A DNA stretch of 42,128 bases from Legionella sp. (GTDB lineage Bacteria > Pseudomonadota > Gammaproteobacteria > Legionellales > Legionellaceae), in contig JAOATK010000024.1 in the NCBI GenBank assembly GCA_030158115.1, positions 1 through 42,128 of the forward strand, written 5' to 3'. Positions 23,437 to 27,290 of the stretch are shown here, piece after piece. A program made the position numbers and the translations under genes. The stretch's first letter is position 1. The number at the start of each line of letters is the position of its first letter. The notes under the pieces are model-generated. The model was not told the DNA's origin. It saw only the letters and a list, made by a program, of their open reading frames with translations, and ran no database searches.

Positions 23437-23511
23437 TGGTAGGCACGAGTGGGATTGAACCACCGACCACCACCATGTCAAGGTGGTGCTCTACCACTGA
23501 GCTACGTGCCT
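23437..23511 (-). tRNA. tRNA-Val (anticodon GAC)
   Basis: A full cloverleaf is present. The acceptor stem is AGGCACG/CGTGCCT, the D-arm GCTC-AGTGGTA-GAGC, the anticodon stem CCACC/GGTGG with loop TTGACAT (anticodon GAC, reading GUC and GUU), and the T-arm GGTGG-TTCAATC-CCACT. Discriminator A is followed by an encoded CCA at 23439-23437. A promoter lies upstream at 23541-23570. Confidence 0.97.
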
Positions 23512-23600: not shown

Positions 23601-23770
23601 TAAAAATAGAAAGGCCTGAATAAGGGAGATCATTCAGGCCATTATTAATGCGAGGTTTAACCGCTATGGTTATACCACTTTTCCGTTTGTTGAACTGATG
23701 CGATACCTGTTCCATCGTGTATCACTCATTTCCTTGTTTTGGACTTTTGAAACTTAATTCCGTAAATTTC
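23601..23770 (-). ncRNA. Candidate CsrA-binding small RNA (RsmY/RsmZ-like layout)
   Basis: An RNA of about 165-170 bases is predicted from a strong promoter and a terminator on the minus strand. It contains four ANGGA motifs: ACGGA near 23763, AAGGA near 23735, ATGGA near 23715 and ACGGA near 23686. The first is in the loop of GAAATTTA-CGGAAT-TAAGTTTC (23770-23749) at the very 5' end. The third is in the 12-base loop of GTGATAC/GTATCGC (23725-23700). The other two lie in A-rich unpaired stretches. A small TAACC/GGTTA hairpin precedes the terminator. GGA in hairpin loops is the hallmark of CsrA-titrating RNAs. Whether this is a known Rsm RNA or another family cannot be told here. No credible ORF covers it. 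Confidence 0.6.
23604..23640 (-). terminator. Terminator of the candidate small RNA
   Basis: On the minus strand GGCCTGAAT pairs with ATTCAGGCC across a ten-base loop and is followed by TTTCTATTTTT. Confidence 0.8.
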
Positions 23771-23776
23771 GCAGCC

Positions 23777-23804
23777 ATTGTATCAATCTGATTTCTATTG
23801 TCAA
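23777..23804 (-). promoter_or_regulatory. Sigma-70 promoter of the candidate small RNA
   Basis: A perfect -35 TTGACA (23804-23799) is 16 bases from TACAAT (23782-23777). The predicted start near 23770 is the first base of the 5' hairpin. Confidence 0.75.
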
Positions 23805-23811
23805 CCATTGA

Positions 23812-23835
23812 TTTCGAAACGAAACCTAGAGTTTC
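23812..23835. promoter_or_regulatory. Operator-like palindromes between divergent promoters
   Basis: TTTCGAAA (23812-23819) is immediately followed by GAAAC-CTAGA-GTTTC (23821-23835). They lie just upstream of the small-RNA -35 and 16 bases before the HTH gene's -35, a position suited to control both. The adjacent HTH protein is the obvious candidate binder, by inference only. Confidence 0.45.
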
Positions 23836-23850
23836 CAAAAAATGAGAGTG

Positions 23851-23880
23851 TTTACAGGTTAGGTTTAGCTTTGTTACACT
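23851..23880 (+). promoter_or_regulatory. Promoter of the HTH regulator gene
   Basis: TTTACA (23851-23856) and TACACT (23875-23880) are 18 bases apart, about 40 bases before the ATG at 23920. Together with the tRNA promoter, small RNA and palindromes, this accounts for the 408-base gap between tRNA-Val and the HTH gene. Confidence 0.5.
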
Positions 23881-23919: not shown

Positions 23920-24402
23920 ATGGAAAAAGTGGACTTAACAAAACAATTTTCTTATCGCTTACGTGATGCAATGATTGCTGAAGGTTATAATTCGCAACGC
24001 TCTTCATCTGGGGTATCCATTCATAAATTATCCGAAATCACAGGATATTCACTACAAATCTGCCGAAAATACTTACGTGGTGAGGCGATACCTGAGCCTC
24101 TTAAATTGGTAGAAATTGCAGCGAAACTCCATGTTTCAGCAGGCTGGTTGCTCTTTGGTGATGCTCACAATGACCAGGGTATTTCGAAAAATAAAATATC
24201 AATCAGTAAAAATTTACTCCACTATATTTTCACCAAGACTTCAATTCTATACAATGGCTCACTTATGGAACACGAAGTGCCTGATTTCTTAATGGAATTA
24301 ATTAATGATGTCAGTCTTATCAATGCAAATGAAGAACAATCAAAAAAAATTGTAGATTTGGCGTTGACTTCAGTGAAGCATTTTAGTCATCCACATGGAT
24401 AA
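23920..24402 (+). CDS. Helix-turn-helix transcriptional regulator (XRE/repressor-like)
   Basis: A 160-residue protein with an N-terminal helix-turn-helix of the XRE/phage-repressor kind: SIHKLSEITGYSLQICRKYLRG (about residues 31-52), then PEPLKLVEIAAKLHVSAGWLLFG. The C-terminal half is an unrecognised helical domain. I chose ATG 23920 (MEKVDLTKQF) over the earlier in-frame start at 23881, which abuts the -10. The ribosome binding site is weak. It is divergent from the candidate small RNA, with palindromic sites between them, and is followed 16 bases later by a truncated sensory ORF. Confidence 0.75.
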   Translation: MEKVDLTKQFSYRLRDAMIAEGYNSQRSSSGVSIHKLSEITGYSLQICRKYLRGEAIPEPLKLVEIAAKLHVSAGWLLFGDAHNDQGISKNKISISKNLLHYIFTKTSILYNGSLMEHEVPDFLMELINDVSLINANEEQSKKIVDLALTSVKHFSHPHG

Positions 24403-24418
24403 TAAGTAAGAATAATTT

Positions 24419-24688
24419 ATGGAAAATCGTTGTAACGAGGTTATGCCTCATCCGCAATACCTGGATGTTCTTTTTGCATTTAAAAGCAAGGTTTCATCCG
24501 TCTTTCGAGATGTTATGGGAATACATGAAATTGATCATCTTGCCTTTACTCGCATTAATAAAAATAAGCAAATACTAACCTTATCATCAACCCTGGCTCT
24601 TGAGTTTAATTTATTTAGTAGTCTGCTGTGGCAATATGCTAAAACCTACTTTTACTATGAGTACAATAATTCAATGAATTCTTTTTGA
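24419..24688 (+). pseudogene. Truncated sensory-domain ORF (possible LuxR-type regulator remnant)
   Basis: An 89-codon ORF with an ATG and only a weak ribosome binding site. The sequence VFRDVMGIHEIDHLAFTRIN and then ILTLSSTLALEFNLFSSLLW looks like the start of the N-terminal sensory domain of longer LuxR-type regulators as I remember them from Legionella. It stops at YNNSMNSF, well short of any DNA-binding domain, and no other frame picks up the missing part. It could be a 5' remnant or a genuine short protein. An AT-rich hairpin follows at 24699. Confidence 0.45.
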
Positions 24689-24764: not shown

Positions 24765-27290
24765 ATGCCTGACTTAGGATTTTTAGAGTTCTCAGTTATG
24801 ACAAAGGAATTGCATTTTTTAATAACAGAAGCAAAAACAATAGTCGATGGATTGCAGGAGCTGGGTCTCATTGAGGATTACATCACATTGTTTCAAGCGG
24901 TATTACGAAAAGAGTTATTGGATGAAATAAATAAACTTGAAAACTTGTTAAATTCAACGCCTAACTCATTGATAAAACAAGAATTTGAAAAACTTTGCCT
25001 TATGCGAGAGGAACAAAACAAAGGCACAAAACTTCATTTTGTCACATCCCCGGAAACCATTTGCAATACACTTTATTTTAATTTTGCTAAAACGCTTTAT
25101 CAAACCGACTCATTTAGCACACTTTGTCCTATCTTATTACCTTCTATAAAAAACATATGGATAGCGACATTAGCATTAGAAGCGCTCCATGAAAATTCAT
25201 ACGAAACACCACATAAAAAAAGGCTTACTCAGGTAGTTAACTTAGAGGTTGTTAAAAATAATGCCGTAGAACTTGAAACTATGGTCTTAAAACCTGAATC
25301 CTTTAAGCGCTTCGTCATTTGTGATGCAGATTTATTTATTCTTGATACGCTTGAGTCCTTTAATTTTGATCTGCATTGTGAGACACACAAAATCCTAATG
25401 GAAAAAGCACCCAAACTTTGTCAGGCTATTGCTACTCATAATACATCTTTCACTGAGCTTTATAGTGTGATCGTACGCTGTCATGAACAAGGGGCGACCA
25501 TATTAAATACCATGCTTCCTCTGATACAGATCATGTCTATCTCTGGTGAACGCTTGGGCCATGGTAAATTCGCCTCAGATGAAGGAACACAGGCCGCTGA
25601 GCAATTAATATCATACTATCATCATCTACCAAAGCCTTTAAAAAAAATGGTCGGTGAATGCACTACAGCTGCCACTCAAAATTCCCTCGCGACAGTCATA
25701 CATAAAATGGAACAACAGGATTGCATTGAAACATGTGCTACTCAATTGCTGGCTATTGTAGGAGATAAAACCAATGGGGTAATGCAATCCATGCCTTTTA
25801 TGAGTGATGATGAAAAAAAAGCGCTTTGTCTTCCTTATAAACAAATAAAAAAAGGAGAGTGTATTGTCAACTTAACGAGTGGACTATTGATACCAACTTT
25901 ACCTTGCGCGATCACAGCATATTTTTATCCTCAAATAATGATTGATAACCTTGATCTCTTAGTAGGAATATTAACCACCTTCCCTACAACTGAATATGTC
26001 TCTATTTTTCGACATGTTGATTTAACCGATCTAAATTTTCGAACTGAATTGCGTTTGATAACACCTGCTTTGAATGCACAACAAAAAGAAGCCTTAGCCA
26101 TTACTCTTCAAAATAGCCTTACTAATCAATGGATTACTTTAAAACCTTCAGATTGGTTCATTGCATGCATCCTGACTGAAGATCAAGAATTTATCGATCA
26201 ACTATTTAAAAATTATACTGAAGAACAGCGGCTTACTATTTTATCTGAAACAGATCATTTCGGTTGCACGCCTATGCACTATATAGCAGAAGGAAAATGG
26301 TATAAGAAGAACAACACGACCATCTTTAAAATTCTTATGCAATTGTATCCGGATGACAATAAAGTACGTTTGCAGGCACTTCGGGGGCAACGTGATAATC
26401 AAGGGCGTATAGCTTTACATTGCCTTGCAAAAAATGCTGAATTAATGGAGCTATTAATACCGCTTTATCTCACTCAAGAGAAAGGTCGTGAAATGCTTCT
26501 AGTCGATCTGCTGACAAAACTTAATGATGGAAAAAATGTATTGCATCTCGCTGCCTCTTCAAAATCCATAAAAGTAATCATGGAGTTTTTTATAGCACAA
26601 AACCTCAATGACTGCTTAAATCCTCTAGCAGAAATAGACGTCGGGCATAACACCGTTCTGCATCACGCAATAGGCAATTTAGAGATATTTTCCTTTCTCT
26701 TAAATTCCTATACCAATGTTAATCATTGTGTAGCTACTTTACTTAAAAGAAATAAGAAGGGCGAAACAGCATGTCACACACGCACAGGAATATTTTATGA
26801 GACCGTCAGTTGCATACTGAATTTTTTAATTGAGAGAAATGCCAAGAATTTATGTGTCCAATTTCTTCAAAATCCCATAACACTCTACTCAAAATCGCCA
26901 CTAGCAGCACTAGCTGGGCAACCTAAAGGCATAGCCATTCTTATGGACTTACTAGGTGAAAATACAAAAAGTATTATAAAAGATATACCTCTCGAGACAT
27001 GGACAAAAACATACAACGAGCCCTCAATCATATATCAGCTAACACTAACCGCTGCAGGCATTGGTTTTTTGCTGTCTTTACTCACTGAAAATCCAGTAAT
27101 TAAGGACTATTTAACACCTGAAAATTGTTTATTGTTAGGGATTGATCATACGAAATTAAATAATGCTCTCCTCATTGAGGAACGACTCAGGGTATCGAGT
27201 GGCATGGCGTCTGCGTTAAGTGTTTTTAATTCACCGCCTCAAGATCACACAACGCTATTGGCGCAACCAGATACCCCTACACTAGGTTAA
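24765..27290 (+). CDS. Ankyrin-like repeat protein, candidate Dot/Icm effector
   Basis: An 841-residue protein without a signal peptide. Residues 1-480 are helical and unrecognised. From about 496 degenerate ankyrin-like units appear: DHFGCTPMHYIAEG, DNQGRIALHCLAKNAELMELL, NDGKNVLHLAASSKSIKVI, VGHNTVLHHAIGNLEIFSFLL and probably NKKGETACHTR. The polar tail ends QPDTPTLG. Ankyrin proteins of this size are a major class of Legionella translocated effectors; function usually lies in the non-ankyrin part, which here has no familiar motif. The start is unsure: ATG 24765 or ATG 24798, neither with a good ribosome binding site. The lipase-like gene follows after 75 bases on the same strand. Confidence 0.7.
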   Translation: MPDLGFLEFSVMTKELHFLITEAKTIVDGLQELGLIEDYITLFQAVLRKELLDEINKLENLLNSTPNSLIKQEFEKLCLMREEQNKGTKLHFVTSPETICNTLYFNFAKTLYQTDSFSTLCPILLPSIKNIWIATLALEALHENSYETPHKKRLTQVVNLEVVKNNAVELETMVLKPESFKRFVICDADLFILDTLESFNFDLHCETHKILMEKAPKLCQAIATHNTSFTELYSVIVRCHEQGATILNTMLPLIQIMSISGERLGHGKFASDEGTQAAEQLISYYHHLPKPLKKMVGECTTAATQNSLATVIHKMEQQDCIETCATQLLAIVGDKTNGVMQSMPFMSDDEKKALCLPYKQIKKGECIVNLTSGLLIPTLPCAITAYFYPQIMIDNLDLLVGILTTFPTTEYVSIFRHVDLTDLNFRTELRLITPALNAQQKEALAITLQNSLTNQWITLKPSDWFIACILTEDQEFIDQLFKNYTEEQRLTILSETDHFGCTPMHYIAEGKWYKKNNTTIFKILMQLYPDDNKVRLQALRGQRDNQGRIALHCLAKNAELMELLIPLYLTQEKGREMLLVDLLTKLNDGKNVLHLAASSKSIKVIMEFFIAQNLNDCLNPLAEIDVGHNTVLHHAIGNLEIFSFLLNSYTNVNHCVATLLKRNKKGETACHTRTGIFYETVSCILNFLIERNAKNLCVQFLQNPITLYSKSPLAALAGQPKGIAILMDLLGENTKSIIKDIPLETWTKTYNEPSIIYQLTLTAAGIGFLLSLLTENPVIKDYLTPENCLLLGIDHTKLNNALLIEERLRVSSGMASALSVFNSPPQDHTTLLAQPDTPTLG

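What the first reader, a model, noticed from the sequence alone, without database searches (positions are those of the whole stretch)
23601..23804. Candidate CsrA-titrating small RNA in the tRNA-Val/HTH gap
The minus strand holds a complete transcription unit: TTGACA, 16-base spacer, TACAAT, then about 168 bases ending in a GC-rich stem plus T-run. The RNA has four ANGGA motifs. Two sit in hairpin loops: the 5'-terminal GAAATTTA/TAAGTTTC hairpin (loop CGGAAT) and the GTGATAC/GTATCGC hairpin (loop with ATGGAAC). Loop-exposed GGA is how RsmY, RsmZ and CsrB-type RNAs capture CsrA, which controls the replicative-to-transmissive switch in Legionella. It could be an ortholog of a known Rsm RNA or an extra member. 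I see no clear LetA-type palindrome upstream, so its regulation might differ.
Basis: partly seen in the sequence, partly recalled or inferred. Interest (0 to 1): 0.8.

Follow-up and report, generated by a model that had tools for sequence, protein, structure and literature searches.

The report
Family-wide Legionella small RNA
A likely small-RNA gene, kept as one copy in the Legionella genomes searched and next to one regulator gene, shows one conserved docking site of the kind the regulator protein CsrA uses, but it does not look like the usual many-site CsrA sponge.

Summary
The minus strand at 23804-23603 carries TTGACA-16-TACAAT, an RNA of about 170 nt and an intrinsic terminator. A covariance model built from 20 relatives finds the RNA once (E up to 0.001) in each of 45 of 45 genus genomes and in 107 of 140 genomes of an order sample, all 107 in the same family. 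It lies divergent from an XRE-type HTH gene in 20 of 20 loci found by DNA similarity. No Rfam family reaches its cut-off on it.

The CsrA reading is partly supported. The second hairpin keeps ANGGA in its loop in 69 of 76 relatives, with the N free, while its stem changes by compensation. Other GGAs are dispensable: 4 of 76 relatives keep only one. In RsmY, a control, six GGA positions stay nearly fixed. RsmY-like and RsmZ-like genes occur elsewhere in 43 and 45 of 45 genus genomes, so this RNA is neither. Its best conserved part is a 3' block (GUGG..CAUAG..ACCUCGC).

My reading: a Legionellaceae regulatory RNA with one obligatory CsrA-type hairpin plus a 3' block, under a local operator. Transcription, CsrA binding and targets are unproven.

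The parts
23777..23804 (-). sigma-70 promoter of the RNA: TTGACA, 16-nt spacer, TACAAT
   Evidence: at least 10 of 12 consensus bases in 69 of 76 relatives, mostly with the same 16-nt spacer; 9.0 expected in shuffles
23603..23770 (-). small RNA, about 168 nt; the 5' end is inferred from the promoter
   Evidence: model R1 match 23605-23777, 154 bits (the window is one of the model's own 20 sequences)
23749..23770 (-). hairpin 1, GAAATTTA/TAAGTTTC, loop CGGAAT
   Evidence: nt 4-34 of the RNA hold ANGGA in 44, GGA only in 10, neither in 22 of 76 relatives
23739..23745 (-). first AGUCCAA repeat
   Evidence: conserved in alignments A1 and A3
23700..23725 (-). hairpin 2, GTGATAC/GTATCGC, with GATGGAAC (23716-23709) in the loop: CsrA-type ANGGA site
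   Evidence: ANGGA at the aligned column in 69 of 76; stem covariation score 0.385 vs 0.182 in shuffles, 0 of 500
23690..23696 (-). second AGUCCAA repeat (AGTTCAA here)
23650..23679 (-). conserved 3' block AGTGG..CATAGC..ACCTCGC
   Evidence: GUGG, CAUAG and ACCUCG columns at 93-100% over 76 relatives; no consistent helix inside it
23603..23640 (-). intrinsic terminator, loop ATCTCCCT, T-rich tail
   Evidence: resembles the CyaR terminator, 33 bits, below gathering 47
23821..23835 (.). inverted repeat GAAAC-N5-GTTTC between the divergent promoters: candidate operator
   Evidence: 58 of 76 relatives, 0.02 expected by shuffling; GAAACTNNNNGTTTC has 2 places in this genome, both at this locus, but other genomes also have it elsewhere or only elsewhere
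23851..23880 (+). candidate divergent promoter of the HTH gene, TTTACA-18-TACACT
   Evidence: 9 of 12; within chance on its own
23920..24402 (+). XRE-type HTH regulator (160 aa), divergent neighbour, possible regulator of the RNA
   Evidence: Pfam HTH_3 24.7 bits, cut-off 23; below cut-off to NCBIfam RstR and DicA; next to the RNA in 20 of 20 loci

Best explanation
It is a regulatory small-RNA gene of the family Legionellaceae. The RNA starts near 23770 and ends at its own terminator. Hairpin 2 presents ANGGA to a CsrA-family protein; this site is close to obligatory, and further GGAs add sites in some species only. The 3' block and the terminator loop, both with C-rich sequence that could pair with ribosome-binding sites, act on other RNAs. 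So it would work as a CsrA-associated RNA that also base-pairs, not as a pure sponge. Its dose is set at the promoter by a local operator, most simply by the divergent HTH protein, not by a LetA box. Shown: the gene's conservation, hairpin 2 under selection with a fixed ANGGA loop, the conserved 3' block, promoter, operator repeat and terminator, and RsmY/RsmZ-like genes elsewhere. Inferred: transcription, CsrA binding, base-pairing and HTH control.
For: Family model: 45 of 45 genus genomes and 107 of 140 of the order sample. Pentamer at the aligned loop column, not selected: ATGGA 61, AAGGA 3, ACGGA 3, AGGGA 2, others 7 of 76. Hairpin 2 with its loop held open: mean -8.6 kcal/mol against -2.55 for shuffled arms, z below -2 in 62 of 76; covariation score 0.385, shuffles 0.182 +/- 0.016, best slid register 0.229; 156 cells changed on both sides against 89.9. 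Three CsrA-family genes in this genome. 3' block conservation. Promoter 69 of 76 (9.0 expected), GAAAC repeat 58 of 76 (0.02), GAAA(C/T) pairs 20 bp apart 67 of 76 (0.1). The open frame from the loop AUG, in the 63 of 76 rows that have an AUG there, runs from 2 to 68 codons (median 15), so it is not a conserved short ORF.
Against: No expression or binding data were seen. The GGA number falls to 1 in 4 of 76 relatives. In one search only 58.9% of cells pair, and two measures do not beat the shuffles (pairs with a change on both sides, 355 of 500 shuffles reach it; further pair types, 91 of 500). No target found: complementarity to the HTH start region equals shuffled controls (mean z -0.015 over 73 loci), and the complement of the 3' block is no commoner than its control in 6 genomes. 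The Hfq or ProQ link was not tested. HTH control rests on gene position and a nearby repeat only; that repeat is missing at the locus in G001 and in its strict form in G007.
Confidence: 0.45

Rival explanations
1. A base-pairing regulatory RNA only. The AUGGAAC loop, the AGUCCAA repeats and the 3' block are seeds for target mRNAs, and CsrA is not involved.
For: The 3' block and terminator are the best conserved parts; C-rich terminator loop similar to CyaR; the bases flanking the loop core are often conserved too (GAUGGAAC).
Against: In the loop the N of ANGGA varies while A, GG and A stay, which fits protein recognition better than a seed. ANGGA is enriched in the RNA. No target found.
Confidence: 0.27
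2. A third CsrA-titrating sponge of the CsrB/RsmY/RsmZ type.
For: Four ANGGA in this genome, two in hairpin loops; mean 2.55 ANGGA per relative against 0.76 expected; 63 of 76 relatives have three or more GGA.
Against: RsmY orthologs keep six GGA positions nearly fixed while 13 of 76 relatives of this RNA have one or two GGA; no LetA box; it carries a large conserved 3' block unrelated to GGA.
Confidence: 0.18
3. A leader or attenuator of the tRNA-Val/thrS unit downstream, not a free RNA.
For: Same strand, directly upstream of tRNA-Val in this window.
Against: A terminator separates them. tRNA-Val was found in 11 of 20 loci and thrS in 11 of 20 (flanks of about 1.5 kb, some cut by contig ends), while the HTH neighbour is kept in 20 of 20.
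Confidence: 0.04
4. The 3' block pairs with 23S rRNA (GCGAGGUUAAC) and acts on ribosomes.
For: 11 nt of perfect complementarity in some species, in the best conserved part of the RNA; my rough chance estimate for an 11-nt match of the 30-nt block is 0.03.
Against: The rRNA site is present in all 17 genomes where the segment was found, yet only 17 of 76 RNAs carry the full complement, and the window RNA does not: an extra A leaves 8 nt. The segment was not found in this genome or in G001, so pairing cannot be judged there.
Confidence: 0.04

Closest known systems
Legionella RsmY and RsmZ (CsrA-titrating RNAs activated by LetA)
   Same: Intergenic RNA genes with ANGGA motifs, found across the genus sample.
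   Different: Separate genes in the same genomes; RsmY keeps six GGA positions; LetA palindrome beside both in G001; no 3' block like this one in the RsmY alignment.
Coxiella CbsR12
   Same: By recall, an RNA that both binds a CsrA and pairs with mRNAs. I saw passages on its effects on carA and metK (PMC10315504) and cvpD (PMC7676224), and the 148-nt entry CbSR 12 in a table (PMC4064990, passages).
   Different: PMC4064990 describes its RNAs as found only in Coxiella. My model gives no convincing match outside Legionellaceae in 369 class genomes, but whether Coxiella was among them is unknown. Sequence homology not tested directly.
CyaR (Rfam RF00112)
   Same: Terminator hairpin with an AUCUCCCU loop; match 33 bits over 23680-23608.
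   Different: Below gathering score (47); the rest of the RNA is unrelated, and 3 of 20 close relatives have a GGA-containing loop there instead.
McaS of E. coli (properties recalled)
   Same: Base-pairing RNA that also binds CsrA through GGA hairpins.
   Different: No homology: Rfam McaS gives 17.2 bits (gathering 42) and on the opposite strand.

Membership tests
CsrB/RsmY/RsmZ-type CsrA-titrating RNAs | ANGGA exposed in hairpin loops | tested here: met
   Hairpin 2 in 69 of 76 relatives with covarying stem
CsrB/RsmY/RsmZ-type CsrA-titrating RNAs | Several conserved GGA sites per RNA | tested here: not met
   1 to 6 GGA per relative (4 with one, 9 with two) and one fixed site; RsmY control keeps six. 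The window RNA itself has four
CsrB/RsmY/RsmZ-type CsrA-titrating RNAs | Match to a curated Csr/Rsm covariance model | tested here: not met
   None on its strand at E up to 10. Weak test: the RsmY-like L104 has no Rfam match at E up to 1 and the RsmZ-like L105 reaches 31.2 of 44 bits
CsrB/RsmY/RsmZ-type CsrA-titrating RNAs | Binds and sequesters CsrA | not testable with these tools
   Needs binding data
Ortholog of Legionella RsmY or RsmZ | Same gene as RsmY/RsmZ | tested here: not met
   RsmY-like at G000:C3:53947, RsmZ-like at G000:C11:38626, this RNA at C24
Ortholog of Legionella RsmY or RsmZ | LetA palindrome upstream | tested here: inconclusive
   Absent upstream of this RNA, but this genome has no exact copy anywhere although RsmY/Z-like genes exist, and 21 of 30 RsmY-like loci show none in the slice examined; in G001 the only two sites are at the RsmY/RsmZ-like loci
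CyaR (RF00112) | Gathering score reached | tested here: not met
   33 of 47 bits
Intergenic bacterial small RNA with intrinsic terminator | Own promoter, own terminator, conserved structured body, non-coding | tested here: met
   transcription itself not seen
Hfq- or ProQ-dependent base-pairing RNA | Chaperone binding and target pairing | not testable with these tools
   Target scans negative so far

The most novel reading that the evidence does not exclude
Legionellaceae in general carry a CsrA-binding RNA beside RsmY/RsmZ that is not on the LetA circuit: an RNA with one fixed site that both docks CsrA and pairs with other RNAs through its 3' block, with its dose set by a dedicated divergent HTH regulator acting on an operator at the locus. 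This would be a second input into the CsrA life-cycle switch.
Probability: 0.27. Interest if true: 0.75.

Novelty: new variant of a known kind. Interest (0 to 1): 0.55.

Why it matters
A structured, single-copy RNA gene found in 45 of 45 genus genomes with its own divergent regulator gene, and without an Rfam family, is a strong candidate for an overlooked core regulator of the family. If hairpin 2 docks CsrA, it adds an input to the CsrA switch that is separate from LetA and RsmY/RsmZ. The fixed 3' block gives a sharp place to look for targets.

Tried and rejected
Chance pattern: rejected by family-wide conservation and covariation.

RNAalifold consensus on the MAFFT alignment gave the terminator and two short helices but not hairpins 1 and 2, because their stems misalign; replaced by loop-anchored gapless counting. 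Rows for one search were the 69 of 76 with ANGGA at the aligned column; the 7 others were dropped.

Short ORF from the loop AUG: rejected (one search had started from the first AUGGA after nt 30, 67 rows). Pairing with the HTH mRNA start: no better than shuffled (start taken as the start of the protein match, which is not ATG in a few loci). Helix inside the 3' block: mostly 0-2 pairs; the simple pattern missed several rows. Complement of the 3' block as an enriched target: no. 23S rRNA pairing: complementarity is real but not kept. Outside the family: 3 weak matches, E 0.002 to 0.009, in 369 genomes, taken as chance. HPnc0260 match antisense to the tRNA: below gathering score.

Literature: searches showed, in the listings and passages I saw, nothing placing an RNA at thrS/tRNA-Val/HTH. 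The ortholog could still be an entry in published Legionella transcript tables whose supplements I could not open, so I do not claim that the transcript is unreported. For PMC3048289 I saw the outline with abstract, part 2 of section 4, section 13 and two passages; for PMC5338858, PMC5928044, PMC8828724, PMC9674577, PMC4064990, PMC7676224 and PMC10315504 passages only. The names thrS and LetA box, and the sponge nature of RsmY/Z, rest on recall or those passages; no family search was run on thrS.

Full report
WHAT IS THERE. The minus strand reads TTGACA (23804-23799), a 16-nt spacer, TACAAT (23782-23777), an RNA of about 168 nt and a terminator stem (23640-23613) with a T-rich but broken tail. 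It folds better than 200 dinucleotide shuffles (z -4.41). tRNA-Val (23437-23511) and an ORF I recognise as thrS follow on the same strand; an XRE-type HTH gene (23920-24402) is divergent.

IT LOOKS LIKE A GENE. DNA similarity finds the 228-base stretch in 20 of 57 genomes, all 20 in the same genus. In these 20 loci (the window included) the HTH gene is always next door and divergent (66-100% identity), while tRNA-Val is found in 11 and thrS in 11 within flanks of about 1.5 kb. A covariance model from these 20 (R1) finds one match at E up to 0.001 in each of 45 of 45 genus genomes; the model's own 20 sequences are among them. In the order sample 107 of 140 genomes match at E up to 0.01, all 107 in the same family, in 23 of 32 genera; a few have a second, weak or reverse-strand match. 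In 369 genomes of the class it finds two genus members and three weak matches with E from 0.002 to 0.009, taken as chance. Named examples come from a scan with the HTH alignment, which kept the best 80 of 123 relatives: 73 of the 80 loci carry a match at E up to 1e-4. Of the 7 without, L092 and L096 start at the HTH gene and hold no upstream DNA; L098 and L099 have matches at E 0.0015 and 0.0025; L065, L085 and L090 have none. In these 80 loci the adjacency is partly by construction. L. longbeachae (L049) and L. norrlandica (L032) are included. L. pneumophila was not named in the list; G001 (3.4 Mb) may be it, but that is a guess.

WHAT IS CONSERVED. Over 76 relatives (73 named loci plus L001, L003 and L015) the columns GUGG, CAUAG and ACCUCG of the 3' block stand at 93-100%, the terminator arm GG..GAAU at 91-100%, and the hairpin 2 loop at A 99, U 87, G 95, G 92, A 91%. 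Read without selection, the pentamer at that loop column is ATGGA in 61, AAGGA 3, ACGGA 3, AGGGA 2 and something else in 7: the N is free, the rest nearly fixed. The stem around it is rewritten: with 69 rows aligned without gaps on the loop, 156 cells change on both sides against 89.9 in shuffles, and the covariation score is 0.385 against 0.182 (0 of 500), with the best slid register at 0.229. Against this, 58.9% of cells pair (bulges and shorter stems), and two further measures do not beat the shuffles (355 and 91 of 500 reach them). Mean hairpin energy with the loop held open is -8.6 against -2.55 kcal/mol for shuffled arms. Hairpin 1 often remains a helix, but its region holds ANGGA in 44, GGA only in 10 and neither in 22 of 76. 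Two AGUCCAA repeats flank hairpin 2 in most rows.

CONTROL AGAINST REAL SPONGES. The LetA palindrome occurs at two places in G001 and at none in this genome. Beside the two G001 sites lie a GGA-rich sequence without an Rfam match and a sequence with a weak RsmZ match (31.2 bits, gathering 44). I call them RsmY-like and RsmZ-like; a paper table labels RsmY lppnc0001 (PMC8828724 passage), which fits a place near the genome start, and that fit is inference. Their relatives occur in 43 of 45 and 45 of 45 genus genomes, this one included. In 30 RsmY-like loci six GGA positions are nearly fixed by eye (L132 lacks the first), and 9 of the 30 show an exact LetA palindrome in the slice examined. RsmZ-like loci were not aligned. 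The RNA of the finding is therefore a third gene with a different pattern: one fixed GGA hairpin, dispensable others and a dominant 3' block. GGA in the whole RNA: one in 4, two in 9, three in 20, four in 26, five in 14, six in 3 of 76. So many relatives do have several GGAs; what is missing is fixed positions.

PROMOTER AND NEIGHBOUR. The promoter reaches at least 10 of 12 consensus bases in 69 of 76 relatives (9.0 expected in shuffles), mostly with the same 16-nt spacer. GAAAC-N5-GTTTC lies upstream in 58 of 76 (0.02 expected), and GAAA(C/T) copies 20 bp apart occur in 67 of 76 (0.1 expected) (relatives are not independent). The stricter form GAAACTNNNNGTTTC has 2 places in this genome and 2 in G029, all at this locus and one of each inside the HTH gene by position; but 1 of 3 places in G006, 0 of 4 in G007 and 0 of 2 in G001 are at the locus, and its genome-wide number is no higher than its control. 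An operator for the divergent HTH protein is the simplest reading, but binding is untested. In G001 the -35 box and the repeat are degraded (L015). The HTH protein has no solved relative by sequence.

HOW IT LIKELY WORKS. I favour a regulatory RNA whose hairpin 2 docks a CsrA-family protein (three such genes in this genome) and whose 3' block and C-rich terminator loop contact other RNAs, with dose set at the promoter by the local regulator. The conserved loop, the covarying stem, the conserved block, the promoter and the repeat are shown. Transcription, CsrA docking, pairing and HTH control are inferred. Two target tests were negative. The 23S rRNA complementarity is striking, but the rRNA site is constant in the 17 genomes where it was found while only 17 of 76 RNAs carry its full complement, the window RNA not among them.

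COMPARISON. By what it works like, the closest idea is a base-pairing RNA that also binds CsrA (McaS and CbsR12; those properties are recalled, with passages on CbsR12 effects only). By membership, it fails the many-fixed-sites feature of the CsrB/RsmYZ type and reaches no Rfam cut-off. The transcript may already be listed in published Legionella catalogues that I could not open; none of my searches showed it.

Noticed in passing
24419-24688 (+): The 89-aa ORF after the HTH gene matches over its first 77 residues proteins of 180-189 aa in the 11 relatives measured of 12 that match; the window copy is shorter. No Pfam or NCBIfam match.
   Followed up: partly
24765-27290 (+): 841-aa ankyrin-repeat protein next to the conserved pair; no match to it in the flanks of about 1.5 kb of the other 19 loci.
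   Followed up: no
24123-24137: A second copy of the GAAACTNNNNGTTTC repeat inside the HTH gene, about 300 bp from the intergenic one; G029 has two copies at nearly the same spacing. It may follow from conserved codons.
   Followed up: partly
G000, whole genome: RsmY-like and RsmZ-like genes are present but no exact LetA palindrome exists in this 2.03-Mb genome.
   Followed up: partly
L205, L214 (23S rRNA): The 3' block of 17 of 76 RNAs is complementary over 11 nt to a 23S rRNA segment, GCGAGGUUAAC.
   Followed up: partly
L015 (G001): The ortholog in G001 has a weak -35 box and a degraded operator repeat although the RNA body is well kept.
   Followed up: no
family genomes g28 (G072, G079): Two 0.5-Mb genomes of the family have no match to the RNA model, which fits loss in reduced genomes.
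   Followed up: no
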